This document shows, piece after piece, positions 10,431 through 37,555 of a stretch of 64,000 bases of DNA. The first letter of the stretch is position 1. Every line of letters starts with the position of its first letter. Position numbers and translations under genes: made by a program. The DNA is from Mesocentrotus franciscanus (taxonomy: Eukaryota; Echinodermata; Echinoidea; Camarodonta; Strongylocentrotidae): NCBI GenBank assembly GCA_037976565.1, contig CP137679.1:6927973-6991972 (forward strand), written 5' to 3'. The notes under the pieces are model-generated. The model was not told the origin of the DNA and made no database searches. It saw only the letters and a list, made by a program, of their open reading frames with translations.

Positions 10431-10485
10431 TGGAGCCAGAAGGGTGTTAACTGATCTACATGAACTAAATGCCCTTCTTGGTCTG
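10431..10485. repeat. Small hairpin of the GCCAGAAGGGCGTTAAC family
   Basis: Left arm GGAGCCAGAAGGGTGTTAAC, right arm AATGCCCTTCTTGGTCT. The arms pair imperfectly around a short AT-rich loop. Confidence 0.7.
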
Positions 10486-10710
10486 ATTATATTTCTCCAT
10501 TTGTTATCATATACTTTTAGTATTTTTAAATAGATATGAAATAAACCTGAATAATGAATCTTTAAAAAAAAATGTAGTAGATCATAAAAACTGCAGCTGT
10601 TGTAACAAAGCACCGCTTCTGGTATATTAACACAGTCTGACACCCATCTTGGTTCTGGCTATCAGTGGGGGGCTGTCTGAAATGCACTGGATATCATCAC
10701 TTCATCTCTT

Positions 10711-10769
10711 TGGAGCCAGAAGGGCATTAACTCAAATATTTTACGCAGAGTTATGTCCTTCTGACCCCA
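10711..10769. repeat. Small hairpin of the GCCAGAAGGGCGTTAAC family
   Basis: Left arm GGAGCCAGAAGGGCATTAAC, right arm GAGTTATGTCCTTCTGACCC. It lies about 230 bp after the previous member. Confidence 0.7.
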
Positions 10770-12648
10770 GCATAAATTTTGTCTCAGGGGCATGCCTGTA
10801 GGTTATAGGAAGATTGTAGATAGGGAAAGACAAAGGTCGAGTGCCCAGATGTGTTCCTTTGTTAAAAAGCCGTTTTACACCCCTACATTTCTCTAAGCCA
10901 CCTAAAGTGTATAATACACATGGATGTAGAAAAGATTCTTCTTCAATTTTCTTTGACATTTCTCTTGTAACACTTCTTGTTTGAGAATGGTATTATTTCT
11001 GCATAATTCATATCATGCTAATTGAGCAGATGCTACTTGTATTTTGCTTCCATGAAAACTTTTGTTGATATCAACGGTTGTCCTGTTCTCCAAAAGATGC
11101 CTCTACTCAACCTTCTCAAAAACAAAGAAAACACTAAGTAGGCAAATTCTTTTTTAACCCATGAAATGAAAATAAGTTTGCCTGAAACATTTTAATACAC
11201 TTTTTAGAAAGCAGTGTAAGATAGATCTGTGCACACTTTGGAGATTATCATATTGTCATAGTTATTCAAAGAAAGTATTATGGTGGGAGGCTAGGAGCTG
11301 AGAGTTATTTAGCTCAGGAAAGCTCTAAAAGAGCTCTAGTGAAAAGAAGCAATGGAATATAGAAATATTACCTTGAGGGAATGTACTTTCACAACAGCAA
11401 CTACTAAATCTAAAATAGCTCGTGTAATCAGAAAATGTGTTTTTGCACTGTAAACTTCAGCATGCTCAAAGTTTATTTTAGATCAAGTAATGTTATCAAG
11501 GTTTACAAGAGAGAGAGTTCATTATCTCTCTTGAACGCATTACTTTAGAACATATGCTTATCAACCTGAGGCAATGTTATTATACTGTCTCAGGAATCAT
11601 CAATGTTTAGATAAATAGACCTCTTTTCTTCTGTCAAAACCACAATATCCTCTGAAACCATGTGCTTAGCTTGACATGAAGAGAGATAGAAGACGACTTC
11701 CAAAGCAAACCAAGACGGGCATTTAATTGGAAAATGGGAGAACTTCTAGCCTGGGGAAGGGAAGGGGATGAAATATATTGGCAGAGCTTTTAATTATGAT
11801 ATAAGAAGAGACATAAAGATAACACCAGCTGCATTTGCACTGCAAGCAAAAATCGTCAATATTTCCTGTTTTGATATTTAAGGTGGATTAATAATTTTTC
11901 TTAAAGAAATGAGCTTTATTAATAATCATGGAATCAATGATAGAGTTAAACAGCAGAATGAATTTAAGCCTTTCAGGGTAATATGATCATGAAAATGAAA
12001 TAATATAAGACTAGGTTTTGAGTTGTTTACTCATAACGAACCAGGATGTATAAATGGATAATAATATATAAAACTACAATTTGAGACATGGATTTATAAT
12101 ATTTAAACCAATAATTATTGCATACCTGTATGGTATATACATGATTTATAAAAGATATATTGCTTTGAATAAAGAATTTATATTCCCATGGATGCTTCAC
12201 AAAAGTGCTTTGGAAACCAACATAGGTTATTACTAGTCTGTAGACACAGACTCCATGTTGACAGTTAAAATCAAAAGTTCCACAAAGCCTTCAGCCTAGC
12301 TTAATTTTGTGAGTATGTGGCTGTAGAGTAGCTTTAGTACAGCCGGCAGGTCCTGTGGAATGTTGTCTTGATATAGTCTAACTGTTCAGACCCTGTTTTA
12401 CATGTTACATGGAGGATGAAGGGATGAGCATCATGAGGGCTTGCGCATGCCAACTAGGTCATCTGTAAATTCTATTTTCCACAGTGTCCATGTCCAAGGA
12501 CAAACCATGAACAAGTTGACATTCCTTGTCAACAATGGAGGCGAAAAGCAACACACAGATATTCAGTGAAATATGACTCACGTTCATAGAGTAGGAACCT
12601 GACAATGAGGGGTAGTGCAGAGGAGGTGTGACAGACAGGACATGACTG

Positions 12649-12690
12649 TCTGCTGAGAGCCAGAAAGGCATTAATCTGGCTTTCAACAGA
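12649..12690. repeat. Compact hairpin of the GCCAGAAGGGCGTTAAC family
   Basis: Arms TCTGCTGAGAGCCAGA and TCTGGCTTTCAACAGA pair around AAGGCATTAA. The outer arm is kept but the inner GTTAAC arm is lost on one side, which suggests an internal deletion. It directly abuts a triplet microsatellite. Confidence 0.75.
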
Positions 12691-12732
12691 TGATGATGAT
12701 GATGGTGGTGGTGGTGGTGGTGGTGGTGGTGG

Positions 12733-12775
<43 letters not shown>

Positions 12776-12783
12776 AATGATGA
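12691..12783. repeat. (TGA)n/(TGG)n triplet microsatellite
   Basis: Uninterrupted triplets with GAT, then GGT, then GAT phases. Read on the minus strand it gives a poly-His run, which is not a gene. Confidence 0.95.
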
Positions 12784-13457
12784 TGGGGATTTAAATGATA
12801 ATACATGTATTGTTTACCCTGGATAGATCAGAATTAGAAAACACTGTTTCTCCCTGAGCACCGTACAGTCCTATTTTGCTCAGAGCCTATGTGGCTCTCT
12901 ACAGACAGTGAGCTCAAACTGACATCCTGGTCAGAAGAGTTCACTTCAAACAGTTCATTGACATTGCAAATATGCCGGGTCTTGTCAGTTTATCAGGAAT
13001 ACTATGTTGACCACAAAGTCTTACGTATCGAGTAATAGTACCATCTAATAATACAGAAAATTTTGAAGTGGTCCTATGCTTTATTTAGGCTATTGTTCTA
13101 AATGTATGGTAGTCATTTTGGGGGCGATGTAAGTTCAATGGTTCAATGATATGTTATGATTGACGTTTTCATATTTATTGTTTACCGCCTTACAATAAAA
13201 TTATTTTGTAAAAATATAGTCCTAGCATAAATTTGTTTCCTGATAATTTCTGTGGAGGAATTTTTAAGGCTACCTTCTACAATTGGTTAGAGGTTTTTAA
13301 AATGATATTGGTCAGTGACAACATCTCTTGACATAGCTTTTGACAATGGAATATTTTGACAATGAATTTCTATGACTATTTATTGAAAAAGTGAGAGAGA
13401 GCCTGACCTTGTGTTATATTAGGAAAGTAGTGTAATCTATTCTGTTAACAATATAAC

Positions 13458-13520
13458 TGTAAAGCGTATTTGAACATGTATATGGAAAATGCGCTATATA
13501 AATACATTATTATTATTATG
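13458..13520 (+). repeat. SINE 3'-end fragment
   Basis: AAAATGCGCTATATAAATAC followed by ATT repeats. This is a tail arrangement common to tRNA-derived SINEs of marine deuterostomes and fishes. No head is recognisable upstream. Confidence 0.5.
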
Positions 13521-13944
13521 ATATGATGAAGATTTCTTTACACAAACTCTACCATTTTCATCACTGAAATAAATACTTGCAAGAAATTTATGTGAGACAG
13601 TATGTTTTTTTCTGTTTTTCATATAAAAGGTTACCTGCATTTCATGGGACTTTTATTGCATTTCGTCTGTTCTGTTCAAATTTGATAACGATTATAGGTC
13701 TATTAATATATCAATAGTTTTGATATGCTGTATGTTCTGAATAGTTTGATTTTATGAGTGGCTAGTTCTTAAATTCTTTCTCTGCTTCACATTTATCGTA
13801 ACCTCCCTCACATCCAAACTTTGCTCTTTGGCTTTAAGTCAACAACACTTTACCATGAAATGCAGTCGAGCTTGAAATACCTTGTTTTCAAGCTGAATAT
13901 ACAATGAGATTTGTAGTGAAGCATTCAGATGAGACTAACACCTG

Positions 13945-14522
13945 AAAGGAAAGTCCAACCTTGATAACACACTACTCTAGAAAAAAAGCAGATAAAACAA
14001 AGAATCATACAGGTGAAATTTGACAAAAAATTAGAAATTATGAATTTTTGAACGTTGCAATCACTAAAGGTATGGGCTCTTCAAATTGGCTGAATAGGTA
14101 ATGTCTCTGTGATGTAGTGGCGGACAACTTTCCTGTTCGTTTTAACACACAAAAATAACTAAAATTTCAATTTTTCAAAAATATATGACTTGGGATAGTC
14201 TTTACTTTTTAGAGGACCTGTAATAATATACTTGCCATAGTATATTTTGAGTAGTGCCCCAAGGGTGAAGGCACTTGGGAGAAAAAAACAGAAATTAGTG
14301 ATATTTTTGTACACGACAAACGGGAGAGTTATCCATCACTACGTCACAATCCTCTGACAAAATGCCAATTTCAGATTCGCATAACTGTAGTGATCTCATA
14401 TTTCAAACATTCATAACTTTCTTATTATTGGTCCAATTTATTTCAAACTTTTGCCATTCTGTTTCTCTGATTTACTGCTTCCATTCAAATAACTTATTAA
14501 CAAGGTTGCATTGCCCTTTAAA
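13945..14522 (+). mobile_element. MITE-like element with imperfect long terminal inverted repeats
   Basis: Begins AAAGGAAAGTCCAACCTTG and ends with AACAAGGTTGCATTGCCCTTT; the two ends are imperfect inverse complements, and the pairing extends inward (GCAGATAAAACAAAGAAT against ATTCTGTTTCTCTGATTTAC). A second copy lies inverted at about 19296-19772, sharing blocks such as GTGCCCCAAGG and CAAACGGGAGAGTT. No transposase frame is present. Confidence 0.65.
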
Positions 14523-15080
14523 ATCTGTAATTTAGTTATTGTATTCTAACATTCTTGATTTTCCAGAACTCTACTGATCTGGATTATCTCTTACAAATCT
14601 GTTTTCCTATATCCACTTTATCCTACTTTTTCATTGTTCCACCCACCATTCTCTTTTTCATTTATCCCCTTTCTTCCTCTGTCTTGTTTTTGTTTCTGTC
14701 TCTCTCTCTCTCACTTTTCCTCCTCTTTCTCTCTCTCTCTCTTCCTCTTCTGTCCCTCTCTCTCTCACTTCCTCATTCACGCACTCACTCTTTCCTCTCT
14801 CTTCCTCTCCTTCCCTCTCTTCTTCTCCTTACATGTATGTCTCTTCCTCTCATTCCTACTCTCTCTTTCCTTCCCCCTCTCCCTCCCCTCTCCCTCCCCT
14901 CTCTTTCTCTATTTCTCTCTCTCTTTTCCCCTCCTTATCTGAGCGTTTGTGTATTATATGTGCATGTTTCTCTCCCATCTATCGTCTCATTTATATTTCT
15001 TTCTCTACATTGTATTTTAGAAACTAGCAGTTTTGTAGGCCTAAACATTGTGTTGTAACTTTGTCAATTATCCATACAAA
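14523..15080. repeat. CT-rich (pyrimidine) tract
   Basis: Degenerate CTCTCT/CCTC repeats from about 14698 to 14938. The Ser/Leu-rich open frames across it are artefacts of the simple repeat. Confidence 0.85.
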
Positions 15081-15535
15081 GCTGTTATTCTTTCCAGACT
15101 TACTGCATGTGTATTTTTTCACACATTACTCACCAAATCTCTCTTCCTGGAAAACTAACCAAGATATACGTTGCTATTATGCATCCTGTTTATCTAAAAA
15201 TAAGGTGTAATAAAAAAAGCGGGAATAAAGTATTCAATTTCAGAACTGGAAAAACCAAGAATTTAGATGATTCAACCGCCCCCCCCCCAATATTCATGAA
15301 TACCGGTACCATAAATGGGTCTCTCTAAATTCTCAGTAAATGTAATGAAAGCTAGCATTATCGATTTTTCAGATTCTGAGTTATGGAAACAGTGTGGGCG
15401 ATGGTATATGTTCTTGGATTTGACTTAGGGGGTGAAAAGGTAAAAGAGAGGAAAAAAAGGGAATATGATATCCTTAAAAGATTCCAGACAAAAATTGTTT
15501 GCATGTGGCGTGTTTATACCCCTCAAGGTATACTA

Positions 15536-15689
15536 GGACCGGTCTACGCTAGACCAGTCTATGTTAGAGCAGTCTAATGGTGAGTGTGAAGGCACAACTG
15601 TGCCAGGAAGTGTACCTCTGGACAGATCCAGAAGACCACATGACGTGCTGTGGAGTGGTCTAGTGGATCAGTCTAGCATAGAACGGTCC
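15536..15689. mobile_element. Small MITE-like inverted repeat
   Basis: The left arm GGACCGGTCTACGCTAGACC (15536-15555) is inversely matched by the right arm ending CTAGCATAGAACGGTCC (15673-15689), with further pairing inward. The interior of about 100 bp shows no coding. Confidence 0.5.
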
Positions 15690-15902
15690 AATGAAGTGAG
15701 TGAGAATGGGGTCATATTTGTGAGATGTTAGTAATCGTTTGTTGACAGCAGCATCTTTCCAGATACCCCCTCACCCTCAGTGGTGATGAAAAAATAAGAT
15801 CGAAAGGGGATGATATTGAAAGGATTGTGACAACCTTTCAACCTCCCTGATTCTGCTCTTTTCTACATTCTCTCTTCTCTGCATGTTTCTTTGTATACCA
15901 TC

Positions 15903-16283
15903 TTCTCTCTCTCTCTTTCTTCCCCTCCATCCCTTTCCCATCTCTATCATTCTCTCTCTGTCTCTCTCTCTGTCTCTCCCTCCATCCATCCCGTGCTTAA
16001 CCCTTTCCAATTGCTATCACTCTTTTTTCTCTCCCTCTCTCTCCTCTCTCTCTCCTTCCATCTTCCATCTATCCATACATTTATCCCTTTCCCATCTCTA
16101 TCACTCTCTCTCTCCCCCTTTTCTATCCACCCTTCATCCAGTCTCCATCTCTATAATTCTCTCTCTGTCCTTCTGTCTTTCTCCCTCTCCCTCCATCCCT
16201 TCCCCATCTCTATCATTCCCCCTCTCTCTCTCCCCCTCTCCATCTCCCTCTCCACCCTCCCTCATCCCTCCTCCTCTCTTCCA
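15903..16283. repeat. CT-rich (pyrimidine) tract
   Basis: Imperfect array of CTCTCT with recurrent TCCCATCTCTATCA blocks spaced irregularly, that is, a degenerate minisatellite inside a microsatellite. Confidence 0.85.
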
Positions 16284-17349
16284 CTCCTTCTATTGACTCT
16301 CTTGACCCCATGGTCATGTGCATTCCCAGTAGAGGTCAAAACCTTCCTGAAATGAGGACAGTATGTTATTGTTGTTGTTATTGTTGTTATCCCTCCCCTT
16401 AATCCCACTAGAGCCATCATGGGTTGGTTGTTCCTCTGTCATCAAGGGAGTAAGATAGTCTCACAATTCTTACCTTGTTTATAAGGACAATCTACTCTCA
16501 TATATGGGACTGTAGAGCAGGTTTAGACTATGTAAGGCTGTAGCCTGTACTGTATGAAGCAACTTTCTTTCTTGCAGGATAGTAGAATTTCTATCGAAAG
16601 GGCTACTTTTAGCCTGTAGAATGAAGCAAAAAATCAGGCAAAAACAAAACAAGCAAACGAACAAAAGAAAAAGGAAAACAGGCTTAGATCTGGGAAAAAT
16701 ATAGCCCTATGTGTCAACCAATTTGTTTAATTGGCCTCAAAAGTACCTGCAGAAATACAATTTAAGTAGGAGGTCTATTTTTTAAGTATTATAAATCATC
16801 TTTGTAGTTTCAGTGTGTCTTAAAGAAAGATGTTTAAATGGTAGGCATATAGCCTTAACGATAACAAATGCCTTCTACAGTTTTACTTGGACAAGCTAGA
16901 TCTCATAAATTACTTGAGATTATACATGCAAATTTAGTGACAGACAGTGGACATTAGTCTTTGAACAGCAGAGTCCAATACATTCTTGAGATTTGACATG
17001 ATGTTGACATGGCTTGAATCAACAAGGTAACAGCCTAGTGTACGTTGTAGGCCTTGATCAGTGATACATTTGTTGCACGATTGACAGTCAAAAGTTGATA
17101 ATTCTTTATTCCTCTTCAGTGATTTCATTGATTTGGTGGGATTTGATGCAGGTTTTTATATGATTTGATGTTTATTGAATGTAGGACATGTCCAAGATAT
17201 GTTGAACTCTATGTTACTAAACCTCTATGTTACTGACTAATTCAAAAAGAAAAAAAGTGTACATATCTGATGATTGTATAATGTTGATAGCCTAGCTCTA
17301 CCAATAGTACCATGGCCTGACTAGCTTGAAGTTGGATCACATTAAATTG

Positions 17350-17424
17350 TCTGTTCAGAGCCAGAAGGGCGTTAACTCGTTGTTAGAGTACGTGATGCCA
17401 TTCTGGCTTCAAAGTTCAAACAGA
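17350..17424. repeat. Small hairpin of the GCCAGAAGGGCGTTAAC family
   Basis: Left arm TCTGTTCAGAGCCAGAAGGG then CGTTAACTC. Right arm GATGCCATTCTGGCTTC then AAACAGA. The left flank ATTAAATTG is shared with the member at 37468. Confidence 0.8.
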
Positions 17425-18059
17425 TGAAATATCAAGAACAGTTATATATTAAGGTTACTTATGTACAATATTTGAGCACACTTTAATGTATTGGACACCA
17501 ATTAAAAATATACCACATAATCACCCTGTAAGGCTGTATAGAGGCTGCAACAACAAATCTGCAGTCAGAAATGGAATTTGCTACAAGTTGTGTCTGATAG
17601 GTTCAGACTAGCAGCAGCCACTCATACAGCACAGGCATTCCATTTCAGTTGAATGGCCTACCAATCTGACTTTGGAAATACAACTCCTCTGCATGTTATT
17701 GTGTGTGTGGTACTGGGGCGTACACACAGATAGACTGGTATATAGGTAGACTGGAAGATACCATTCTCTACATGGATTTGTATAGCAAGGACAAGGCTTT
17801 GATCGTTGTTCTGGTGGACGAATTAGCATGGAACTGTAGGCGGTTGGTTGCGGAATGGACTATACATAGAATGGTAGTACTGCCCAATTGATGCTCTTGT
17901 GTTCTGCTGGAGCTAGGTACTGGAAAATATTTGTTAATTCACCATTGGTCATAATTACCTACAATTATTTGATTGGGATAACTATGGAGCAAGTTCACTT
18001 TTGTTTTCACACCAGTGTAACTGTATGCATCAGCCAACAGAGAAGACTGTGACTCCAGG

Positions 18060-18083
18060 CACTCTCTCTCTCTCTCTCTCTCT
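18060..18083. repeat. (CT)n microsatellite
   Basis: Uninterrupted CT run. Confidence 0.9.
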
Positions 18084-18974
18084 TTATCCGAGCTGATTTA
18101 CTCCTTGGTATTGGTAGCAAAGGAAGGAAGCTGGAGAAGTTGATACCGGTGTAGGATACTGTTAGAATTGGGCTGGGACTGCATCGGCAATACTTCTGGT
18201 ATCCTGTCTTCTAGTGGTATTTATCAGAAGATGGAACCACTTATCGCCGAAATGTAGCGTCTTTGCTGGGCATAGCTCACAATGTCTTGACCATGTTGAC
18301 ATGCAGATTCAAATGATTAGAAAATCCAAGGAATATCTGGAGTTATCGCACGAGATGGAATCCTACTAACTGAGCTGAGCTGAGTGAAATGGAATACAGA
18401 GCAAGATTTTGAAGAAAACTTTCCATGTACTACTAGTTAGCAGGTGGGAAAATAAACATGATGAAGTAAATACTAATGAAGAGAACTAACTTACCGATCG
18501 TGCCTTGGGCTGCTCTCTTTATTGCAGTTGCGAAATACTTGCAGACCTGGTATACTTGGGAAATAAGTCCTTGTGTTCTATTATTAGAATGAATGTAACA
18601 ATTCATGAATACACAAGAACCATGTCAACTTGCAAGGCCTGCTCAAATATCATTTTATCAGGACTAGAAATGTACTGATGATAATTTTCCTAGAATACAT
18701 AGAGCTGCTTTTAAGGCAAAGTACTTCCAAGCAACACTGCGCTGTGTTGAATCTGTGGATATCTAGAACCAGTACTATTTAAATTATCATCTACAGAGTG
18801 TGTATATCATGTAATGTATTATGGACAAGACAGATTATTCTGCGTTTGCAACACAGGAATAGCCTGAAATACGCCTCCTAGAATTAATTGAGTCACTTTA
18901 GTGTACAACAAAGAGATATAAGCGTATGACGCCTCATGGATGCTTTTGTGATGTATGACTCACGTGAATGATGG

Positions 18975-19064
18975 TCACCAAGACACTCACCAAGACACTC
19001 ACCAAGACACTCACCAAGACACTCACCAAGACACTCACCAAGACACTCACCAAGACACTCACCT
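18975..19064. repeat. 12-bp minisatellite, unit CACCAAGACACT
   Basis: About seven near-perfect head-to-tail copies. The period is a multiple of three, so one frame repeats a four-residue unit, but no gene context supports coding. Confidence 0.95.
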
Positions 19065-19295
19065 CTCCAAACATCCACATCTTACCCCATCTGCTTTGAT
19101 GAGGCAGTTCCAAAAAAGGTATTAGAACATGCTACATGATGTGAATGTATTGTATCGTGTCATTCGTGTGATTGGCAGCGGCAGACTGGCCATGGGGAGT
19201 TTGGGGAGTTTTCCCCACAGTCCGGTCTATTATTTTTTAGCTTTACAAGAGTTGGTCATTTTGCAGTCGGAGGCGCGATTGTCAAACTCTATAGT

Positions 19296-19772: not shown

Positions 19773-19810
19773 TAGATTCTATTTCCCAGCAGACATTAAA
19801 ATCATAATTA

Positions 19811-19835
19811 TCTGTTCAGAGCCAAAAGTGACTTT
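19811..19835. repeat. Half-site of the hairpin family
   Basis: TCTGTTCAGAGCCAAAAG is present, with no pairing arm downstream. Confidence 0.45.
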
Positions 19836-20029
19836 ATTACTTGATTGAAATTATTTAAATGCATCAATATGAAGGTGCACCAGTTTCTAGCACTTGGCAG
19901 GAAATAAAACAAATGTTGTATTGGGTTATTTTTATTGAGTGTGTAGATGAGATGAGGTCATTTACATAACTGATATGAGCTTGTTTACTTCTCTAGTGCC
20001 TCGGTGGAAATATAAATAAATATATATGG

Positions 20030-20090
20030 TCTGTTCAGAGCCAGATGGGTGTTAACTGTGTGTTATAACGCCTGTCTGGCTCCAAACAGA
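20030..20090. repeat. Small hairpin of the GCCAGAAGGGCGTTAAC family
   Basis: Left arm TCTGTTCAGAGCCAGATGGG then TGTTAAC. Right arm TATAACGCCTGTCTGGC then TCCAAACAGA. The terminal TCTGTT/AACAGA pair is intact. Confidence 0.8.
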
Positions 20091-20091
20091 C

Positions 20092-20393
20092 GATATATTG
20101 TCGCCTGGCTGGCAGAAGGGCGTTAGCTCGAATTTCAAATAAAAAATGATGCGCTATGCAGAAGGGCGTTAGCACTAAATCGCCTCAAATTTTTATAAAA
20201 CTGACTTATTTCCGAACAAAATTTGTGGCCGTGTTCTACTATTACATTTCTATTAGTCTTTTAAGTTTTATACCAATTTTCCGGACGGAAAGCAGTTTAA
20301 ATATAAAACACATCTTTAAGTGCTAATAATTCGAAGAGTAGTTTTCGGGTCGCTCGCGCGCTAACGCTCTTCTGCCACCCGGGCGACGATATC
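20092..20393. mobile_element. MITE-like element with terminal repeats related to the small hairpins
   Basis: The left end GATATATTGTCGCCTGGCTG continues to GCAGAAGGGCGTTAGC. The right end GCTAACGCTCTTCTGCCACC continues to GGGCGACGATATC. About 35 bp of terminal inverted repeat flank an interior of about 230 bp that holds another internal GCAGAAGGGCGTTAGC at about 20159. The core matches the hairpin arms, so this may be a longer family member. Confidence 0.7.
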
Positions 20394-22560: not shown

Positions 22561-22643
22561 ATACTTAAGCTGAGTACGAAGAAGAAATATTAGAAAATCC
22601 AATTAATGAGGACCCTATTTGTTGAACTGTAGTGCGTTATACA

Positions 22644-22711
22644 TCTGTTTAGAGCCAGATAGGCGTTAACTCTTATAATTTGATAGAGAGTTGACAACGC
22701 CCTTCTGGCTG
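22644..22711. repeat. Small hairpin of the GCCAGAAGGGCGTTAAC family
   Basis: Left arm TCTGTTTAGAGCCAGATAGG then CGTTAACTC. Right arm GAGTTGACAACGCCCTTCTG then GCT. The outer right end is diverged. Confidence 0.8.
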
Positions 22712-24000
22712 TAATGAGGATATGATGCATATATGTATGGGCCGATTGGGGCTGGTAGCCGATTGGGGCTGGTACTAGCCTGGTAGCTGCTGATTTTGCA
22801 TTCATTTGCTATCCAGCATGATTTTGTAATGCAACCTATCTATTACATTGGATCAAAGTTTTAGATAGCATTGTTTGTTTGATATTTAAGATGCAAAGTA
22901 ATTAGCAGAACATGTTATTACCATTTGAAGTATAAAGCCATCCATATAAAGCATTTAAGGTTGTCCATAAACCTCCCCTTGCCTCATGGCCAACTAATAA
23001 TGCATGTGTTGTAACAAACAATATTGTTTGGTTTGACATGATAGGCATTGTAGATACAAATTAATTTCAGTAGAGGTGTGCGATTTGTTGTTGAGAACAA
23101 TCTTTCTTTTTAATTGGTATGTAACCTTCAGAGTTACGAGGAAATATTTTCAAGCACTTTTAAGTATTCTTTAACCTTGGGTATTCAATTCGACTGTCAG
23201 TGATCCAAATCCACTTGATTTGTTTGAGTATTTTCTATAGTTTGTGGATATATACCTCAAGTATGGCTCACTTATCTGCTTTTGTAGTAGAAGGTTGAAA
23301 ATGACTAAGCTAATAAGAATTTAGCCCTGGAAAAGTGGAAAGCATGAAAGGGTCTCTAGAAAGCAAAAACTCTGGAAGATACTGGTGAGATATTAATAAA
23401 GAAATGTATTTATAAGCCATTGAGTTGTCCCCAGTCAAATGCGACCATTTCTATAGAAATATTTTGTAAGTATGTGAAAAATTAATTTGTCCTGATTTAT
23501 GTTTACATGTGAATGTGACATATTAGACTTCATTACATCTAAACAAATTCAACAAAGGCCCTAATTCAACCATGAAATAACCTTAAAAACATCAAATTTA
23601 CAAGGGGTATGAATAATTTTGTTGGTAACTGTACATGCACTCGCATTCTGACTTGGACGAAGTAATATAATAAATCACTATTATATAATTAATGTACAAA
23701 AAGTAATTTTTTAACAGGGAAGTTACTTATCTGAATGTATATTTACGCCTATAACCTGTACCTTTAATTTGGGTAGACAAGCCTATATTCTGATGTTTGG
23801 CCACATAAAGACACTCATTTACATTAATCCAGTTGCTATTGATTTTGCAAGGTCATGAAAGCTGTATAATTGATTTCTTTCTTGAATAATGAATACACCA
23901 CCCTATATATGTTGTAAGTATCGTATCTAGTAGAGCCTATACAAGGCCTTGATTCTGCTGGTAAATTATACATTGACTTCTTTAGGTAAGCCTGCTCTGA

Positions 24001-28262: not shown

Positions 28263-29560
28263 TGGGGATACCTGTAGGCTGTAATGTCATGATATAAAAT
28301 AGAAAGAAAATTAGAAAAATGTTAAAAATTAAATCTTTTTAAAGATTATTCCATGGTTGAGTAAATACAAGTTTTATCAGTATGCTAGAACAGTGCAGGT
28401 TAGGGCAAGTGTGGTACATGATGTACATCTTCGTTGCCATAATAATAATCAACGAAATTGGTTGTGGTAGTTCACGCCAGAAAGACAATGAATACCCCTT
28501 TTATAAAAATAATACAATTGCAAGGTAGTGTAGATTTAGGCCAAATTAGGGAACAAATTTATAGAAAAATAATCTGACCCAATTCTATATTCAGAGAAAG
28601 AAATGATTGATATATTAATTCCTCATTAATTCCTCATAAATTAGCCAGCTCTACCTAACTAAATCTGAGACAAATTCACTAAAAATTCCTCCCAAGATCT
28701 AACGCTACTCGCTAGACTTCTACTTTAATTTTAGCAATGTTACTTCTTGCTATTTTATTTAGTTTTACTATTTCAAGTGAGATACATTTGCATAATATAA
28801 TTAAGGCACAAAACTGCAAAAGAGGCAAAGAGCTGAACTGAAGCAAGACTCGAAAAGTCGAATTCGAATGATTTATTTTTCAGTTACAGAGCAAGACATC
28901 AAATTATACATATGGGACTAGACTCTACAATCAATTCGTGTACGATCAGACAAATTAGAGTCGAAAATTCGTTACGCGAAGGTCACGTGACACTTCATGC
29001 ACAAAGACAACATCGCAAAACAACAATTTTCGAATTTTCATCGACTTTGGATGAAATTTTGATCGCTTTGTTTATTTTGAAGCCAAAACGAGTTTGGTAT
29101 CAGAATTTCGGTCAGAATCTCATCTATTCAAAGAGCTGGAATTTAACGTCATCAGATTTGTAGATGGGTCAGGATCCAGCAAAGTATCAGTGCATGCAAA
29201 ATCAACTTCTTGAAATAGCAGCTTCTTTTATCCTCCGTATCTTTGTCAAATAATGTCAGATTTAGCTCAAAAAAACAAAAAATGATTCGTTATTTATTGG
29301 ACGGCAAGACTTACCCAGTCATGGCTCCGGTTGCGAATCATTTCTGCACAATCGCAGTCGACGTTCGGAGAGTCATATTCTCGTAAAATCTCGTAGTGCG
29401 CGAGACAAGCCGAGAGCTTGTGAGAGACGTAGAATAAAATTGTTCGTTTTGCTCATTAGCATATGCCGCTGCGTACGGACTGTCTGTTGCAATATTGTTT
29501 TGATGTGACGTAGATAGTGACTCGGCTCTTATGAAATAATGTTGTGGTAATTTAGGATGG

Positions 29561-32500
29561 GAAACAAATATGATAGTGACAAAGTATCATGTTTTCCCCA
29601 GAAGGGCTGAATGCCTGAACCTGAAATATCAATTTTGTCAAATTTCTATTACCTTAATACTCTGGATTGCTCAAGTAATTGAGCTATAACTATTAGCAAT
29701 TTGGATGATCTTTGATGTCTGAATTTATATCTGTCGGATACGTGTAGCCAATGATTTGCTATACGCTCCATGATTGTAACCAAAGTGTTGGAATGTATTT
29801 CCTAACAGTGTAGTATGTACATCCGTTGTCTTTCTTTCTGCTAGGTACAGAATGCCATGTATTTCTCTTGAAATCTGATTTAATATCCTGGCTCCAAAAC
29901 AATATGACACTCCACAGTCAATGAACATGGGCTGGAGAGGATGACATGCATTTCTTTTCAAATCTAGCCTGTTTGAGGACCATGGAAATTGCAATTCAAT
30001 GACTTGGCTCTAAAACAATGTGATAGAAAGTATTTGAGCATGGAATAGAGAGGATGATATATTGTATTTCTCTTGGACTCATAGTTGATCATGGTCCAAA
30101 CCATCATGGCAATTGGTCCTCCACGGATGCAGAGAATGAAAGAAGCCACTTCCTGGTGTGCATGAGCCGAAGAAGAAAAGGAAGTGATGTCAAGTGACAC
30201 TATGTCAGGATATGAGAATGGATGATGGGCGTAGACATGGGATGTGGGGGCTACCCCCGTAATGTGGGATACATTTTATATATCTTTCTTTTTAAATCAA
30301 GTCCCCCACCCCGTCTGATTTATACTAGTGACAGATACAACTCAAAGTGCATGTGGCTTATGAAAGGGGGTAAGGCATTTATCAAACTGTGCATTAATGC
30401 CTGTAGGCACACACTTTGCTCATTTTCAGCAACTGGAGTTGTGAGACATTTAATAAAGCAACATCCGCCCCCATGTATTTATGCCACATAGTCTCTGATT
30501 CTGTGGTATATGTAAGGGACAGGGGGTCGAATAACCCTATTTTCTATAAAGCAAATTAATGCCCATGATGGGCCCATGGGCACTTTGCTAATTTTTCTCT
30601 CCCCCCCCCTCCTGCTGAAAATCATTTTGCAGCACCTCAAGTAGCATAATACAGTGACCCTCCTGCTCCTTCTAAAGCCAAGGCTGAGCCCGTCATTACA
30701 AGAAAGTCCAGTTACTTTGAAGCTTATATTTGCAACAAGTTCAGTTCAGCTTAACCCCCTCGTGGGATTTATCCCCTAAATAGTTATTATATTACATCAC
30801 TTGGACCAACAATATGACCCTAAAAAGGACACCTACGCCTCAAAAACCAACAACAGGAACCGTTTGTGTTGTGCTTTGCAGGAATTCACAGATACAAAGG
30901 CTAATTGAAGAAAAAAATGGTAGCTATCAATGCATCCTGTTATAAGTCATAAAAACCAGAGGGTTTTCCTGAAATTTTGAACAGATTCACAGCAGCAGCA
31001 GCCAAGCTAACTACCTACAAGCTAACATTGTGTGTACCAACTGTAGCTATTCATTGCATACAGGGATCTAGCATTTGACAGAGACATATGTGGGAGAGTT
31101 GGTGCAGACAGAAGTCAAGTCCAGAGATATGAGTTATTGGAATTCATTTGGTGATGATTCTTGCATATATCATTCAGAGAAAGCTTATGTCTACTTGAGA
31201 GTTGCCTTACTCTACCATCAATCATCCATTATTCTCATATTTTGTTATGCAGAAGATTAAAGGAGGATTAGGTCCATGGCATAGATGAATTTGATGTTGT
31301 TTCCAGTCGTTCAATTGGATGTATCATAACGAGAAGTTCTTGAGCAAAAGATAGAGAAGAAAATAAAACATTGTCAGAGGAAAGACTGCGTTACATGTAT
31401 CTGTTTTTATATTGTCAATACTGTTGTTGAATAACTTAATTCATCTGATATGGATTTTAAGTAGTATTTAAAAAAGATTTTTAGTGACCTAGTCTTGAAG
31501 AAAGTCTAGTCAGCAGCTGGCATTCAAGCTACACCTTTATAACTCCAAAGTACAGTGATCGCAGAAAGGCCTAAATTATTAATCACATCGTCATCAATCA
31601 CCCACAAAAACCTTTGCGAAAAGATCTGAAATGTCATCAGTTTTGTTGTGGATATTACTGCATGGTTCATGTAACTTTGCTTGTCATGATGAAATGTTCT
31701 GACGTTCTTTAATGACAGTAAAAATACAACGTCGTTTTTGTTTTCGCTCTGTCGCTAGCAAGGTGGTAGTACTTTCGAGGTTGACGCAAGCGAGTCTTGC
31801 CAACATACCATCTTCGTTGATTCTTCTAGCATTCGAGATGTCAGGTGTCGTTGGGTTCTTGAAGCAAAACGTGACATGTATGACTAGCGAGAATGTTCTA
31901 CCGGATGTCCCAAACTGCCTGAATTGTGATTCCCATCGAAGCCACACCATATTGTTAAATAATTAAGCACAATATGGCCTTTAGCCTGCAGGTAGACGAG
32001 GCCAATTTCATGTACATGGAGTCTAGTACTTGATACATTGTAACGTTATTTACAGTTGCGTGAGTACGACATTACATCGGCTGTGTCAGAATATTATTCT
32101 CTTCAGAAAAATTTGAGGCCAATTTGATGAACGTGGAATCTTGTGCTTGATACATTGTTATGTTAATTAGAAGTGCATAAACAAAACATTATATCAGCTG
32201 CGTCAGAAAATTTGTCTCTTGGAAAATTTCCAAGATGTATCCGATTAGGCAAGGAAGTAAGGATGATTCCTATGTGGTAAGTTTTCTTGTTCACTGTTCT
32301 TATATTGGTTGCACTTTCAGTTTCACAATCATTTTACTTACCGGTATAGTTATTCAGAATGACAAATGTATAGTCAGGATTTATGTGCTATTCTAATGGC
32401 AGGTGTGTATGGTCACCTATGTTTTACAGTAGGCCTATAGGTTTTGTATGTTTTGTGAGTCAAGCATGATCGAGGCATTCAAGTGTGTAAAAGTTATATC

Positions 32501-32778
32501 AATCTGAAAATCAAGATGGAAATCTATACAGTCTGGTCAATATATTCTTAACACATTCATGAAGAATTGAGTAAATTGTACAAATTTCTATTTGTTCTAC
32601 TTATTATTATTTTTTACTATTCAGTGGTTATCTGATGTAACACTATATAAATGTGGAATAACTACCAGTATATACGATGTAGATAGTCTTCAAACTGCAG
32701 TGCATTGTATTTTATAGTTCAATATAATGATATCATGCACATGTATAAACCTAGTAGAACTTAGACACACATTTCATA
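29561..32778. other. AT-rich non-coding stretch
   Basis: No gene recognised. C/G homopolymer patches occur at 30240-30310 and 30600-30612. A CpG-richer patch at 31690-31970 is open on both strands (84 and 88 codons) but matches nothing I know. Confidence 0.5.
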
Positions 32779-32781
32779 TTA

Positions 32782-33439
32782 GACCCCTGTTACACATGCG
32801 TCAGCTTTTAAAGCCGGCTTCGGAGGCGGCCTCATGCCTGCAATTTGAAGCCACCTCGAGATCATCAAACCCCTGTTACACATATCTCGGGCCCGCAATT
32901 TTGTGTCTACACATAGGCCGGCCTCACGTCGCCTTTTCACGAGCTGACGTTGGGGCGCACTCCAGGAAGACAGAAAGAGAAAGTGATAGAATGATAAAAA
33001 CAAAGAATAACATAAGGAAGGACAGAAAGAGAAAGTGATAGAATGATAAAAACAAAGAATGACATTAGAGAACGTGATAGAAGGAAGAAACAAAGAATAA
33101 CATAAGGAAAGACAGAAAGAGAAAGTGATAGAATGATAAAAACAAAGAATAACATAAGAGAAGATGGCAAAGCGCCCGATGTATTATGTTGATATATGAT
33201 GACAGGTCACGTCACTTCCACTTATAAGCCAGCCCGAGTCCACTTTGGTGTTACACCTACTGATTGCGGGACTGAGTCGGACTCGGGCCGGCCTCAAACC
33301 ACATCCAGAGGTGGACTGAGTCCACCTGGCCTCAGTCCGGCCTCAGTCCGGCTTTTCAAAAAAAGTTGATGTTACACATACGTCGAGCCGCCTCCGGGCC
33401 GGCCTCAGTCCACTTTCAGATGTATGTGTAACAGGGGTC
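32782..33439. mobile_element. PIF/Harbinger-like MITE, 658 bp, with TTA target duplication
   Basis: The left end GACCCCTGTTACACATGCGT and the inverse complement of the right end (GACCCCTGTTACACATACAT) match at 18 of 20 positions. Both sides are flanked by TTA (32779-32781 and 33440-33442), the 3-bp target type of PIF/Harbinger elements. The interior is unusually rich in GCCGGCCTC and CAGTCCGGC motifs in both orientations, and holds a 50-bp-period minisatellite. No transposase is present, so it is non-autonomous. Confidence 0.85.
32967..33160. repeat. About 51-bp minisatellite inside the MITE
   Basis: Units built on GACAGAAAGAGAAAGTGATA and GAATGATAAAAACAAAGAAT, three full and one shortened copy. 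Purine-rich. Confidence 0.9.
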
Positions 33440-33968
33440 TTACTTTATTTTCTTAATGCTATATTCTTTTGATGACACTTCCGTGACACTTCTGCGACAT
33501 TTTGAATAATTGTCTGGCTCCAGAACAAAGGGTGATGAGAAATCAATACCCTTTCAAAACAAGAAATGTCTTGATTTATGACATCATTTTGAAGTGTGCT
33601 TTTGAAATGAAGGCCATAAAACAGAGAGGGAATCGAACATGAGCCAAAAGTTGCTATAATAAATCAATGTAATGCTGCAGCCAGCAAGCAGGCGCGCACT
33701 GGCTGTGTTTAGACAAACCGACAATTTTTATTCTCTTTGCACAATCTTTACTCCTTTGTAATCTTTACTCCATTTGAGTTTATTAATGTTTTCAAGATTG
33801 GTACAAATCTCTAGATATCAGGTCATGTACATGTGTAGGCTGACATTGTTGTGTTCTCTTGTGGCACAGAAAGTTAAATGATTAGTACAGTGTACATAAA
33901 AGATGGTCATTTTAATGTAATGTTGGTACCAATATTGATAACAAACTATTGATCATGGCCATATTGAC

Positions 33969-34012
33969 TGATGGTGATTATGATGGTGATGGTTATGATG
34001 ATGATAGTGATA

Positions 34013-34047
<35 letters not shown>

Positions 34048-34096
34048 AGTGGTGATGATAATGAGGATGGTAGTGATAATGGAGATGGTGTTGATG
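33969..34096. repeat. (GAT)n triplet microsatellite
   Basis: GATGAT array, purest at about 34012-34047, with GGT and AAT variants. It gives an Asp-rich or Ser-rich artefact frame. Confidence 0.9.
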
Positions 34097-34632
34097 ACAA
34101 CAGTTGCAATAATAGTTCTTTATTTATGAATATTATTGTATTGATTTCAGTTATGTGTATCAGAGTCATAATTGTCAGCAAAAACAACCTAATATAATAG
34201 CTTATGTATTATAAAAGGAGAGCTTTGGGATTTCCAAATCATTGTACTTGAATTATTTGACTGATTGAACCGACATAGAAACCAACCCATCGGCAACATA
34301 TTTGCCAAGCATATGTTCCCCTACAGCACCTCTGTGTCCTATTACATCTGATCTGCCCTTGGCCAAGCAATGCACTTGAATCTGTTGCATTTTGTATGAG
34401 AGCAAATAATGGATGGCGCTCAGTTATCAGGGGACATGAGAGCCAATTCACACAGCTAGGAATTTAACATGTTTGACTATGGGCTCCGTTCACACAAGAG
34501 GAAAAATTCTATAAAGAACTCATAAAGCTAATTCACAAGAAAATCTGACTATACATGTAGGTGCTTTCACACAAGAAGAAATATTGTAATATGCTTTATC
34601 AAGAAACACATGTAACATACAATATCCAAAGT

Positions 34633-34722
34633 CCTTAGGAAGCGCATAGAGACATTATATCATAATGTAATATGCACTTTACAAGAACGGCATACATTTA
34701 TTATTATTATTATTATTATCTT
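34633..34722 (+). repeat. SINE-like 3' end with ATT tail
   Basis: TAGGAAGCGCATAGAGAC, then TATGCACTTTACAAGAAC, then ATT repeats (34699-34719). This resembles the tails of other SINEs in the window. The upstream part (34480-34600) repeats TTCACACAAGA twice. Confidence 0.4.
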
Positions 34723-34933
34723 TGCCTCTTGCCTTTCCTTTACATGTGAAGTTTTTTTCTTTCTTTTCACAGCAGCTTTAAGCTGTGTCATTTCAGATTG
34801 ACCTAATTATGTTAAAGATGACATTGATATTTATATCATGAAGATTTCATATCTCCAAGTATCATAATTACATAGTGCTAAGGTTTAGAGATTCTAATTT
34901 TACATTTGCCCATTTTGTTTTTCTCTGTTGCAG

Positions 34934-35052
34934 GGTATCCCGAATCGTATGAAAAAGGCTCTGAAACGGACAAAGAGCGTAGGTAAATTTGTAGAACCAC
35001 CACGTCAGCAACCCTTCAGACCTACAAAGGAAGATATAGAGGAATGTGGAAG
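34934..35052 (+). CDS. DAB2IP: Coding exon of a SynGAP/DAB2IP/RASAL2-type RasGAP: basic N-terminal segment
   Basis: Internal exon of 119 nt. It is preceded by a pyrimidine-rich tract ending TTGCAG and followed by the donor GTATGT. Reading opens in phase 0 with GIPNRMKKALKRTKSVGKF and ends ...DIEECG plus the two bases AG, which the C of the 45342 exon completes to Ser. The basic KRTKS stretch resembles the Lys/Arg-rich segment ahead of the PH domain in vertebrate DAB2IP and RASAL2. In that family this segment lies in the N-terminal membrane-associating part of a protein that switches off Ras at the plasma membrane. There is no initiator ATG at the exon start, so at least one more coding exon lies 5'. 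A 15-bp minisatellite begins about 40 bases past the donor. Assignment rests on splice phase, order and motif resemblance. The symbol denotes the family, not a proven one-to-one orthologue. Confidence 0.75.
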
Positions 35053-35093
35053 GTATGTATCTCATGAGGACATTATTATGGTTCTATGTCTCA

Positions 35094-35260
35094 CTGGTCA
35101 CCACTCCCCACTGGTCCTACATCCATTGGTCCTATACGTCCGTTGGTCCTACGTCCACTGGTCCTACGTCCAGTGGTTCTATGTCCATTGGTCCTATGTC
35201 CATTGGTCCTACATCCATTGGTCCTACGTCCATTGGTCCTACATCCATTGGTCCTATGAG
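35094..35260. repeat. 15-bp minisatellite just after the RasGAP exon donor
   Basis: About eleven units of CCATTGGTCCTACGT with A/G and C/T variants. It begins about 40 bases downstream of the donor at 35053. The 15-base period keeps a frame open, giving repetitive artefact peptides. Confidence 0.95.
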
Positions 35261-35424
35261 TTAGGCCAGTAGGACATTTTTTTAAAGTCTTCATTTGCAT
35301 TGACTCCTGTATGTTCAACCTGTCCTTTCCCCTACTGAGTCTCATCATGCAAATGGACGTTATACAACTACGTACATGTCTAATAAAAATAGGACCAATT
35401 GTTTTGGATCAGTGGGATATAGAT

Positions 35425-35625
35425 CTAGTTTGTTTGTTTGTTTGTTTTACCAGACTGCCAAGAAAGCATGTGTAAGTAAACAATCAGGTGACTGATAGCT
35501 TTAAGTCCTTTCCAAGGAACTTGGTAATGAGGATTAATGCCTTACCAAAGGGCACTAGCACATTGACTTGGTTTCGAACCTGGGACCACTGCTCTACCAC
35601 TGAGCCATCGTGCCTCCTGGTTTGT
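35425..35625 (-). mobile_element. tRNA-derived SINE
   Basis: On the minus strand a clear tRNA-like head: A box TGGCTCAGTGGTAGAGC (plus-strand 35591-35607) and B box AGGTTCGAAACC (plus-strand 35570-35581). A body with GTGCCCTTTGGTAAGGC follows, and a tail of four AAAC units (plus-strand TTTG repeats at 35429-35447). The polymerase III boxes are near consensus, so this copy may be fairly young. Confidence 0.9.
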
Positions 35626-35781
35626 AGGACTGAAGAAGGTAGACCGTCCCATGTATCGTTTTTTTTTGTAGTTTCAAGAACATTGTGCTCCACTCTCCTG
35701 TTAATAACAAAGTTATGTTGTACTTGTTTCTTGGTCTATATTAGCTAGATACCATTCCAGGTTTAAAGGGAAGCATGTAAG

Positions 35782-35810
35782 CTGTCCAGAGCCAAAAGGA
35801 TGTTAACTTT
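35782..35810. repeat. Half-site of the hairpin family
   Basis: CTGTCCAGAGCCAAAAGG then ATGTTAAC, with no pairing arm downstream. Confidence 0.45.
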
Positions 35811-36278
35811 TGTGTGGAAGTTGATCTCCTTCAGTCTCTCAGCAGAGGACATGTGAAGCATACTCTCAATGAAAATTTTGACAAAATTTGGGAAATGCCA
35901 AAGCCTTGTAACAGCTCTAACCATGACAGCCCAAAGGGAAACTTGGCATGCCTTGAGGCATCTAGAACTCTAAACATAATTGAGAACAAATATGATTTTT
36001 ATTTATTCTCCCTTTACAGAATTTCCATCCTGATTGCTTAAATCCGCCCATGGTTTTTCAATTAGAAAGAGGCCTTAAAGAATGGAATATTTCTTTGGGA
36101 ATGTTTGTTTTGTAATAAGTCCTCAGGATGAAGAAGTCATGAATGTTTATTGTTTTATTTGTGAGATCATAATCAATTCCACATTGTTTCAGTGTTACCA
36201 TGAATGTTACCATGATAACAAAGGAAACAGAGGAAAACACCAATGACATATGGGTATGGTGGTGGTTTTGTTAGCCAA

Positions 36279-36337
36279 ACAGCTAAAAGTGTGTTAACTC
36301 ATATCCTATAACACAGAGCTAACATCCTTCTGGCTCT
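36279..36337. repeat. Small hairpin of the GCCAGAAGGGCGTTAAC family
   Basis: Left arm CAGCTAAAAGTGTGTTAAC is diverged; right arm GAGCTAACATCCTTCTGGCT. Related half-sites follow at about 36390 (TGTCCTTCTTGCTC) and 36527 (CGCCCTTCTGGCTTTC). Confidence 0.6.
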
Positions 36338-37467
36338 CGTCTCCTGAGAGACATGAGGTGATGACTTGTATCCTCTTAAATGAAGTAATGTCCTTCTTGC
36401 TCTTTTAAACAGATATCTTTATCTTAGAAAATCTGTGGTTGAGTCTTCCTCTTGTAATGCGACATGAACAGTAACATGCATCATGAAATGTTTGTATAGA
36501 CACCAAACTGTCAAGACTTGTATCGCCCTTCTGGCTTTCAAAGTTATCTTCATCTTGAAACCTTCATGATGTTATCTTCCTCGAGTATTATGATATGGAG
36601 ATTCACATGGTTAAAGAAATGTTTAAATTAAAACCAACTGTCCAGAAGTGATTGGTCCAGGGTAGAAGTCCAGAGGTTGAATTGTACCAGGGGTGCAATT
36701 GTTTGTCATTTTAGATTAGCATCGAATCACTGTCATTTGATAGAGGCGGTGTAGACTAAAGTTCTCGAGGCCTCCTCCATTCATACATGGATTTTCAGAA
36801 AGCACCGTTTATGAAGCATATGAAGCTGCATGGGATGTCTTTGCTAAGGGTCACATGTTGTCATTAGCAGTATTAACTGCTTTATTGCAGGCAAAGAACT
36901 TTATTCCTGATTGAATTATATTTCTTCATTGGTATTCAATATTGTGTTACCAGACTGGACAGCCTTGTTGATGAGATGATCTTGATATTTATAATTGTAA
37001 CACTGTCATTATCATTGGAGTTGATGTATCTTTATTCATTTATGATTTTCAAGGGGCCATGGTAGATGTCACATTGAATTTCCAAATTATTGCTCTCATA
37101 GTTGTTTAATCATTTAAAAATATCAAAACATTGGATTTGTACAAACTTAGAGACAGATAAGTATTGCCAACTGGTAAATAACTTAGTATGTAACCTCAGC
37201 TTTTCTTGATAAACTTGATATCAAACTTTAATGCAAAATATTCCAATATTTTCATGGGAAGACGGCTTAACCGCACATCAAACAGTGTACAAATGCCCCT
37301 CCAACGGGAACAAACGGGATTAATTTCAAAATGTCAATTGGGTCTAAATGTGGAGTTCATTACCTAATCAACGATTGAATGATCTTGTTATTTGGTTCAT
37401 AGTAACAGGCCATCAGTATGATCAGTGGCACTGTTTCCCATCTGGTGCTGATTTTACAAGCGCATTA

Positions 37468-37555
37468 AATTGTCTGCTGACAGCCAGAAGGGCATTAACT
37501 CAATGTAAAGCCAAGTACACATGTTAACGCCCTTCTAGCGTTCAGCAGACAATTT
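37468..37555. repeat. Best-preserved hairpin of the GCCAGAAGGGCGTTAAC family
   Basis: Left arm AAATTGTCTGCTGACAGCCA then GAAGGGCATTAAC. Right arm GTTAACGCCCTTCTAGCG then TTCAGCAGACAATTT. Arms of about 33 bp differ at a few positions around a loop of about 22 bases. Confidence 0.85.

What the first reader, a model, noticed from the sequence alone, without database searches (positions are those of the whole stretch)
10431..37555. A family of small hairpins with arm motif GCCAGAAGGGCGTTAAC
At least eight hairpins of 42-90 bp (10431, 10711, 12649, 17350, 20030, 22644, 36279, 37468) and several half-sites (19811, 35782, about 36390, about 36527, possibly 37780) share one arm: TCTGTTCAGAGCCAG then AAGGGCGTTAACTC. 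The arm sequence is conserved while the loops differ, and several copies carry compensating-looking changes in both arms. One roughly every few kb is high for an element this short. No feature type I know explains it; it may be a very small MITE, the relic of a longer element, or a transcribed structural repeat.
Basis: partly seen in the sequence, partly recalled or inferred. Interest (0 to 1): 0.75.

Follow-up and report, generated by a model that had tools for sequence, protein, structure and literature searches.

The report
Tiny palindromic mobile DNA element family
These small hairpins are old copies of a 77-base piece of mobile DNA, built almost entirely of its own two inverted ends, scattered in probably tens of thousands through one animal genome and now decaying without sign of use.

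Summary
The hairpins are real. They are decayed copies of one dispersed repeat, a 77-bp nearly palindromic MITE: two 31-bp inverted arms (CGTCTGTTCAGAGCCAGAAGGGCGTTAACTC) around a 15-bp loop (TGTGTTAAAGTATAT). The same genome (773 Mb, unnamed, held as G000) has 71 places with both exact ends (control 0), and roughly 27,000 copies by extrapolation. Well-kept copies are flanked by a short target duplication, ATAT preferred (19 of 66 identical at 4 bp; shuffles mean 7.9, maximum 14 of 400). A younger 290-bp MITE abuts one hairpin in the window. It shares the CGTC...GACG ends, a 4-bp duplication, and CAGAAGGGCGTTARC at the same distance from the end, so one transposase type probably moved both. 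Decay is CpG-driven. Copies crowd into CpG-poor DNA around a RasGAP gene. No transposase or superfamily was found, and Repbase/Dfam could not be consulted. Verdict: a new member of a known kind, the palindromic MITE, like human Made1.

The parts
10419..10497 (-). decayed copy of the 77-bp palindromic element; strand here and below is that of the loop TGTGTTAAAGTATAT where it can be told
   Evidence: arm score 31.1 and RNA fold z -2.11; orientation 64 against 53
10699..10781 (-). decayed copy
   Evidence: arm score 42.6; fold z -4.61
12643..12700 (.). shortened copy with the loop and inner stem lost; orientation not decidable
   Evidence: arm score 34.9; fold z -4.68; fitted with a central deletion, orientation 46 against 46
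17348..17426 (+). copy with 4-bp direct repeat AAAT on both sides (17344-17347, 17427-17430)
   Evidence: best arm score 49.9; flanks read
19805..19842 (+). lone arm, no convincing partner
   Evidence: leave-one-out score 22.3 above background maximum 18.0; no hairpin (z 0.08)
20028..20092 (+). copy with 4-bp direct repeat ATAT on both sides (20024-20027, 20093-20096); inner stem shortened
   Evidence: fold z -9.32
20099..20388 (+). 290-bp related MITE, ATAT on both sides (20095-20098, 20389-20392), inverted ends CGTCGCC...
   Evidence: 634 first-look candidate places in the genome, 40 scored at 91-100% identity, the window's own copy among them; its ends score above background with a hairpin-only profile
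20112..20127 (+). shared motif GCAGAAGGGCGTTAGC in the left end of the 290-bp MITE
20158..20173 (+). second identical motif copy 46 bp inside; absent from a sister subfamily
22638..22725 (-). decayed copy
   Evidence: arm scores 38.8 and 27.3; fold z -6.81
   Evidence: arm scores 35.5 and 30.4; fold z -2.86; orientation 72 against 63
36266..36350 (-). decayed copy with homologous loop TGTGTTATAGGATAT
   Evidence: right arm leave-one-out score 16.9, under the background maximum 19.2, and aligned loop; orientation from the alignment
36514..36551 (-). weak lone arm (strand is that of the arm)
   Evidence: nhmmer E 0.072
37471..37551 (+). best-paired copy; flanks AAAT and ATTT, not a direct repeat
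   Evidence: fold z -11.55
   Evidence: right arm score 35.4, left arm -7.0, not above null; gapped fits; 37737-37814 does not fold well (z 0.21)
   Evidence: arm scores 31.7 and 8.1; loop TGTGTTAAATGGTAT; 42416-42493 does not fold well (z 0.24)
   Evidence: left arm 33.1, right arm not above null; loop TGTGTTCAAGTATTT in the gapped fit; does not fold (z 0.71)
45259..45570 (+). host-gene exon region, RasGAP PH domain; the hairpins lie in or next to a gene
   Evidence: PF25321 E 9.4e-28

Best explanation
Each hairpin is a copy of one non-autonomous DNA transposon, a 77-bp palindromic MITE made of two 31-bp terminal inverted repeats and a 15-bp loop. Shown: one family with fixed ends, homologous loop, genome-wide dispersal, and a short duplicated target (ATAT preferred). 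Also shown: a younger 290-bp MITE with the same terminal CGTC, the same inner motif CAGAAGGGCGTTARC at the same spacing, and a 4-bp duplication. Inferred: a transposase encoded elsewhere recognised the end plus this motif, cut the element out and joined it to staggered cuts at ATAT-like sites. Since then copies have decayed as neutral DNA does, fastest at CpG. The hairpin shape follows from the element being nearly all inverted repeat, not from selection on RNA.
For: 71 places with both exact ends on 19 of 21 contigs, control 0; 15 perfect-armed hairpin places with one homologous loop, control 0. In 66 copies, clear sequence conservation stops at the 4-bp target, and the 4 bp are identical in 19, shuffles mean 7.9 and maximum 14 of 400; this was the strongest 4-bp register among 80 register-and-length combinations scanned, z 6.5. 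The two central bases are duplicated at z 5.1 and 4.1. In the 290-bp family the 4 bp are identical in 11 of 13 copies parsed by script and in 17 of 21 read by eye in the alignment. Thirteen of these 21 were picked with matches reaching into the query's ATAT flanks (and the window copy is another), so the ATAT share is biased; among the 7 picked without that, 4 are identical, all non-ATAT (AATT, AATT, AAGT, AAGT, the last two one event). The two families' first 31 bases match at 22 positions in register, 0 of 200,000 shuffles reach it, maximum 21. CpG sites carry 37% transitions against 13% at other C/G sites. No stem covariation in 33 and 38 copies.
Against: No autonomous copy or transposase was found. 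For the 77-bp family only the two central target bases are individually significant; the outer A and T are too uniform to test, and among the 33 older regional copies no duplication was clearly detectable. The copy at 37471 has AAAT/ATTT flanks, which is not a direct repeat. No empty sites were examined.
Confidence: 0.92

Rival explanations
1. The hairpins are a transcribed structural RNA or microRNA-like family kept by selection on the stem.
For: Several copies fold far better than shuffles (z to -11.55), and they lie in or next to a RasGAP gene. A 10-copy alignment gave a weak excess of both-side changes (20 of 500 shuffles).
Against: No excess pairing in 33 or 38 copies. The loop is as conserved as the stem. 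RNAalifold finds only 3 pairs, no hairpin, in the 10-copy alignment. No Rfam family reached its gathering score in the window, and none was reported over the hairpins up to E 1. At the CpG of the stem the commonest base is A in the 5' arm (23 of 38) and T in the inverted 3' arm (18 of 38, C 17), which do not pair with each other's neighbours as the ancestral CG did. Several clear copies no longer fold.
Confidence: 0.04
2. The repeated thing is a regulatory binding motif, CAGAAGGGCGTTAAC, multiplied or kept by selection in a gene body, and the pairing is incidental.
For: The motif is shared by two otherwise different elements and sits inside a cluster at one gene region.
Against: The unit of repetition is the whole 77 bp with fixed ends and target duplication. 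Copies occur on 19 of 21 contigs. In 38 well-kept copies the inner stem that holds the motif is no closer to consensus than the loop, and its CpG decays faster. The information profile of 20 window arms does peak over the motif, which this does not explain away entirely.
Confidence: 0.03
3. The cluster spread locally by segmental duplication of flanking DNA instead of transposition.
For: Some copies elsewhere are duplicated with their flanks: L052/L053, L083/L116, L070/L117 (flanks 29-30 of 30 identical), L044/L045, L038/L039.
Against: Clear sequence conservation ends at the 4-bp target in 66 copies from many contigs, no further pair among these 66 shares flanks, and flanks of the window copies show no shared sequence.
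Confidence: 0.02

Closest known systems
Made1 (MADE1), human palindromic MITE of the mariner group
   Same: Same plan and size class: Made1 is 80 bp, two 37-bp inverted repeats around 6 bp, and forms hairpins when transcribed (PMC1784062, passages read). Here 77 bp, two 31-bp inverted repeats around 15 bp.
   Different: No sequence relation was tested or seen. Target is an ATAT-like site, not strictly TA (TA for mariner is recalled). No small RNAs of this family are known to me; none were searched for.
290-bp MITE of the same genome (window 20099-20388)
   Same: CGTC...GACG ends, 4-bp target duplication, CAGAAGGGCGTTARC starting at position 15.
   Different: Of the ten bases between end and motif eight differ, the interior is unrelated, and copies are much younger (40 scored copies at 91-100% identity). 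It agrees with the hairpin end at 5 of positions 1-11 and so fails Repbase's rule of one mismatch there (rule read in passages of PMC4455052).
Chapaev (CACTA-like) transposons
   Same: Target duplication of 3-4 bp (PMC4079192, passages read).
   Different: Chapaev ends are invariably CAC...GTG (same passages); here CGTC...GACG.

Membership tests
MITE (miniature inverted-repeat transposable element) | terminal inverted repeats at fixed boundaries | tested here: met
   66 copies, conservation ends abruptly outside the target bases
MITE (miniature inverted-repeat transposable element) | target site duplication | tested here: met
   19 of 66 identical at 4 bp against 7.9 by shuffling, maximum 14 of 400; at least the two central bases
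MITE (miniature inverted-repeat transposable element) | short, non-coding, many dispersed near-uniform copies | tested here: met
   77 bp; 71 exact-ended places on 19 of 21 contigs, control 0; AGCCAGAAGGGC 5559 against 14
MITE (miniature inverted-repeat transposable element) | derivation from an autonomous transposon whose ends it shares | tested here: inconclusive
   A longer non-autonomous relative was found; of 24 variant ends, the 8 read carry MITE sequence behind the end, L144 only in part; no transposase found
Tc1/mariner (as for Made1) | strict TA target duplication (recalled) | tested here: not met
   290-bp family: AAGT/AAGT, AATT/AATT; 77-bp family: ATTT/ATTT (3), AAAC/AAAC (1) among matches
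piggyBac or Kolobok | TTAA target (recalled) | tested here: not met
   77-bp family: ATAT is the commonest identical pair, 11 of 19; 290-bp family: 18 of 40 scored copies match through both ATATs, one TTAA/TTAG among 13 parsed
Chapaev | CAC...GTG termini | tested here: not met
   termini are CGTC...GACG; rule from PMC4079192
structural RNA / microRNA family | base pairs kept by covariation | tested here: not met
   0.665 against 0.658 (1005 of 5000); 0.722 against 0.730 (8336 of 10000); weak excess in 10 copies only
Repbase or Dfam catalogued family | match to an entry | not testable with these tools
   neither library is held; the 12-base core occurs in the paper library only in one unrelated paper

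The most novel reading that the evidence does not exclude
The 77-bp and 290-bp elements belong to an undescribed transposon lineage with an ATAT-like 4-bp target and a bipartite end signal (CGTC plus CAGAAGGGCGTTARC at position 15). Its palindromic members pile up in CpG-poor, probably germline-methylated gene bodies, where host transcripts could feed them to Dicer, as happened with Made1 and mir-548.
Probability: 0.12. Interest if true: 0.5.

Novelty: new member of a known kind. Interest (0 to 1): 0.3.

Why it matters
It shows that a striking set of matching hairpins at a gene can be explained by a tiny palindromic transposon and its decay, with no RNA function needed. The comparison of two families that share only the terminal CGTC and an inner 15-base motif points to what the transposase recognised. 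The crowding of copies into CpG-poor DNA at a gene is a testable lead on how methylation domains and mobile elements interact in an invertebrate-type genome.

Tried and rejected
Rfam at gathering threshold: 0 matches; up to E 1: three weak matches, none over the hairpins. Exact 19-mer in viral contigs and 21-mer in bacterial/archaeal genomes: 0. Paper library: GGGCGTTAAC gave 49 papers, and the 20 listed titles look unrelated; AGAAGGGCGTTA/TAACGCCCTTCT gave one unrelated paper; searches for palindromic MITEs with sea urchin gave 2 papers whose listings are on other elements and 0. RNAalifold on 10 copies gave 3 pairs and no hairpin. My first idea that ATAT belongs to the arm was wrong: it is the target. 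My first idea that the family lies everywhere at one copy per few kb was wrong: five 10-kb stretches elsewhere had none, and the genome-wide rate of AGCCAGAAGGGC predicts 1.9 per 264 kb against 9 found. Attempt to find an autonomous copy through variant ends: 24 places, 8 read, all with sequence of the same MITE behind the end (L144 only in part), one with a large internal deletion. TSD scan on 33 older regional copies: no clear signal. In one search the two lines labelled CG use a wrong offset; I rely only on the per-position table below them. In one search the 3' arm of e44278 failed to fit (4 letters) and was left in the mean.
Full report
What the window is. It is animal DNA by its gene: the frame at 45259-45570 carries a RasGAP-type PH domain (PF25321, E 9.4e-28), and an exon with the RasGAP domain lies about 29 kb further on in the same direction (PF00616, E 1e-8). 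The genome is held as G000, 773,163,409 bases in 21 contigs, and the window is C14:6927973-6991972. No tool names the species.

The observation. The motif is strongly over-represented: 17 hits against 1.14 expected. A 35-base arm profile finds 24 arms; scored leave-one-element-out, 18 of 22 arms tested exceed everything in 4 Mb of simulated sequence. In the window they make up 13 full or shortened elements, two lone arms, and one longer relative. For three of the 13 (12643, 37730, 44278) the second arm is seen only in gapped alignment, and the copies at 37730, 42416 and 44278 no longer fold.

It is one repeat with one loop. Aligned in the right orientation, loops of window copies are homologous. 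Genome-wide, the pattern AGAAGGGCGTTAAC, 6-36 free bases, GTTAACGCCCTTCT has 15 places and its control none; read by eye, the loops are variants of TGTGTTAAAGTATAT, one of them shortened, and two pairs of the 15 share flanks. A pattern of the two outer ends, TCTGTTCAGAGCC, 42-52 free bases, GGCTCCAAACAGA, has 71 places on 19 of 21 contigs, control 0. The two arms were never quite identical: in the better-kept copies the 5' arm has TTCAGAGCC and the 3' arm, read inverted, TTTGGAGCC. The full element is CGTCTGTTCAGAGCCAGAAGGGCGTTAACTC, TGTGTTAAAGTATAT, GAGTTAACGCCCTTCTGGCTCCAAACAGACG: 77 bp.

It moved. Of the 71 places 69 were fetched, and 66 remained after dropping duplicates. Outside the terminal CG, four positions on each side are clearly non-random (A, T, A, T preferred); beyond them the flanks are near background. 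These four bases are identical on both sides in 19 of 66 copies, against 7.9 expected and at most 14 in 400 shuffles; 80 combinations of register and length were scanned, and the strong ones are this one (z 6.5), its two central bases (z 6.6) and windows that contain them. Position by position, the two central bases are duplicated beyond doubt (0 of 2000 shuffles each); the outer two are too uniform to test, z 1.1 and 1.8. The inverted alternative, that ATAT belongs to the element, reaches no z above 1.8. In the window, 17348-17426 has AAAT and 20028-20092 has ATAT on both sides; 37471-37551 has AAAT and ATTT, which does not fit.

A relative with the same ends. Directly beside the hairpin at 20028-20092 lies a 290-bp element, 20099-20388. 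A first look found 634 candidate places in the genome; the 40 scored are 91-100% identical, the window's own copy included. Its end pattern has 181+172 exact places, control 0. A script parsed 13 of 21 copies and found identical 4-bp flanks in 11; read by eye in the alignment the count is 17 of 21. Thirteen of the 20 fetched copies were chosen with matches that reach into the query's ATAT flanks, so ATAT is over-represented among them; of the 7 chosen without that, 4 are identical, as AATT twice and AAGT twice (the AAGT pair shares flanks and is one event), one is TTAA/TTAG, and two have a damaged left end. Its first 31 bases match the hairpin's at 22 positions without a gap: CGTC, then ten bases of which eight differ, then CAGAAGGGCGTTA and three of the last four. 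Two different elements that share an end and an inner motif at fixed spacing are best read as two passengers of one kind of transposase; that step is inferred. A sister subfamily (L138-L142, L144, L145) lacks the second motif copy found in the window's element, and L142 is shrunk by an internal deletion, which shows how such elements can approach a bare palindrome.

It is decaying, not selected as RNA. In 33 copies from the 264 kb around the window, transitions at the CpG sites run at 0.373 against 0.128 at other C/G sites, while transversions are alike at 0.115 and 0.118. Arms of one element are no more alike than arms of different elements: 0.665 against 0.658 in 33 copies (1005 of 5000 shuffles reach it), 0.722 against 0.730 in 38 well-kept copies (8336 of 10000), 0.638 against 0.644 in the 13 window elements (p 0.66). 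The loop is as close to consensus as the arms, 0.851 against 0.834. Against this stands a weak excess in a 10-copy alignment (67.9% of cells paired against 65.2%, 25 of 500; pairs with both sides changed 15 against 11.1, 20 of 500), which the larger sets do not repeat.

Where it lies. The 264 kb around the window hold 46 rows of arms (44 without the two ends of the 290-bp element), and the reversed control gave no arm. They avoid CpG-rich stretches: in 6-kb bins, 27 bins with CpG ratio under 0.5 hold 43 rows and 17 other bins hold 3 (rank correlation -0.59, p 2.9e-5); 4-kb bins give -0.48 and 12-kb bins -0.52, but the twelve 22-kb bins only -0.29, p 0.36. The RasGAP exons found lie in the dense part. 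That low CpG marks methylated gene bodies in invertebrates is recalled and was not measured here. Five arbitrary 10-kb stretches elsewhere, four of them with CpG ratio 0.70 or more, held none. Against a strict rule, seven of the eight seed loci are this element (L005 is not), and three of these seven lie in stretches with CpG ratio 0.80-0.92 and one at 0.54; they were found through an intact CpG and so favour such DNA. Clustering is general on the stretch seen: over the first 7.24 Mb of C1, where the listing ends, the variance-to-mean ratio of merged AGCCAGAAGGGC hits is 2.0 to 4.0 against about 1, 0 of 5000 simulations reaching it; the rarer AAGGGCGTTAAC clusters clearly only at short range (4 gaps within 1 kb against 0.17; 22 within 120 kb against 17.8). 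From 5559 exact AGCCAGAAGGGC (control 14) and 9 in the 264 kb, I extrapolate about 27,000 copies; with 9 as the base this is uncertain about twofold, and some hits lie in tandem arrays.

Verdict. A palindromic MITE, the same kind of thing as human Made1 (PMC1784062, passages read), with a different target and no tested sequence relation. Superfamily unassigned: Tc1/mariner, piggyBac/Kolobok and Chapaev each fail a defining feature. Whether Repbase or Dfam lists it could not be checked.

Noticed in passing
G000:C1:2312036-2312929 and C1:6607799-6609210: The motif AGCCAGAAGGGC recurs at exact 49-base steps (19 hits), and 8 hits lie mostly 82 or 164 bases apart with one step of 744: tandem arrays apparently grown from the element.
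   Followed up: no
G000:C9:1623625, 1635552, 1647488, 1671281: Four identical copies at about 12-kb spacing (one step doubled); the first two share 30 of 30 flank bases on each side, so a 12-kb tandem duplication probably carries the element.
   Followed up: partly
window 52739-52931: A larger unrelated inverted repeat, arms of 75 bases at 83%, with an inner 30-base pair of arms at 97%; scored weakly by Rfam mir-506, far under its threshold.
   Followed up: no
window 3307-3661 and 6618-6972: Two stretches 3.3 kb apart give the same translation in the part listed, on the minus strand, on either side of an assembly gap of N at 4928-5427: a local duplication or an assembly artefact.
   Followed up: no
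window coordinates about 104,000 to 164,000 (L023-L028): CpG ratio rises from about 0.4 to 0.67-0.84 and hairpin elements all but vanish (1 weak row in 60 kb): a domain edge.
   Followed up: partly
L138-L142, L144, L145: Subfamily of the 290-bp MITE without the 46-bp repeat of the inner motif; L142 is a strongly shortened copy.
   Followed up: partly
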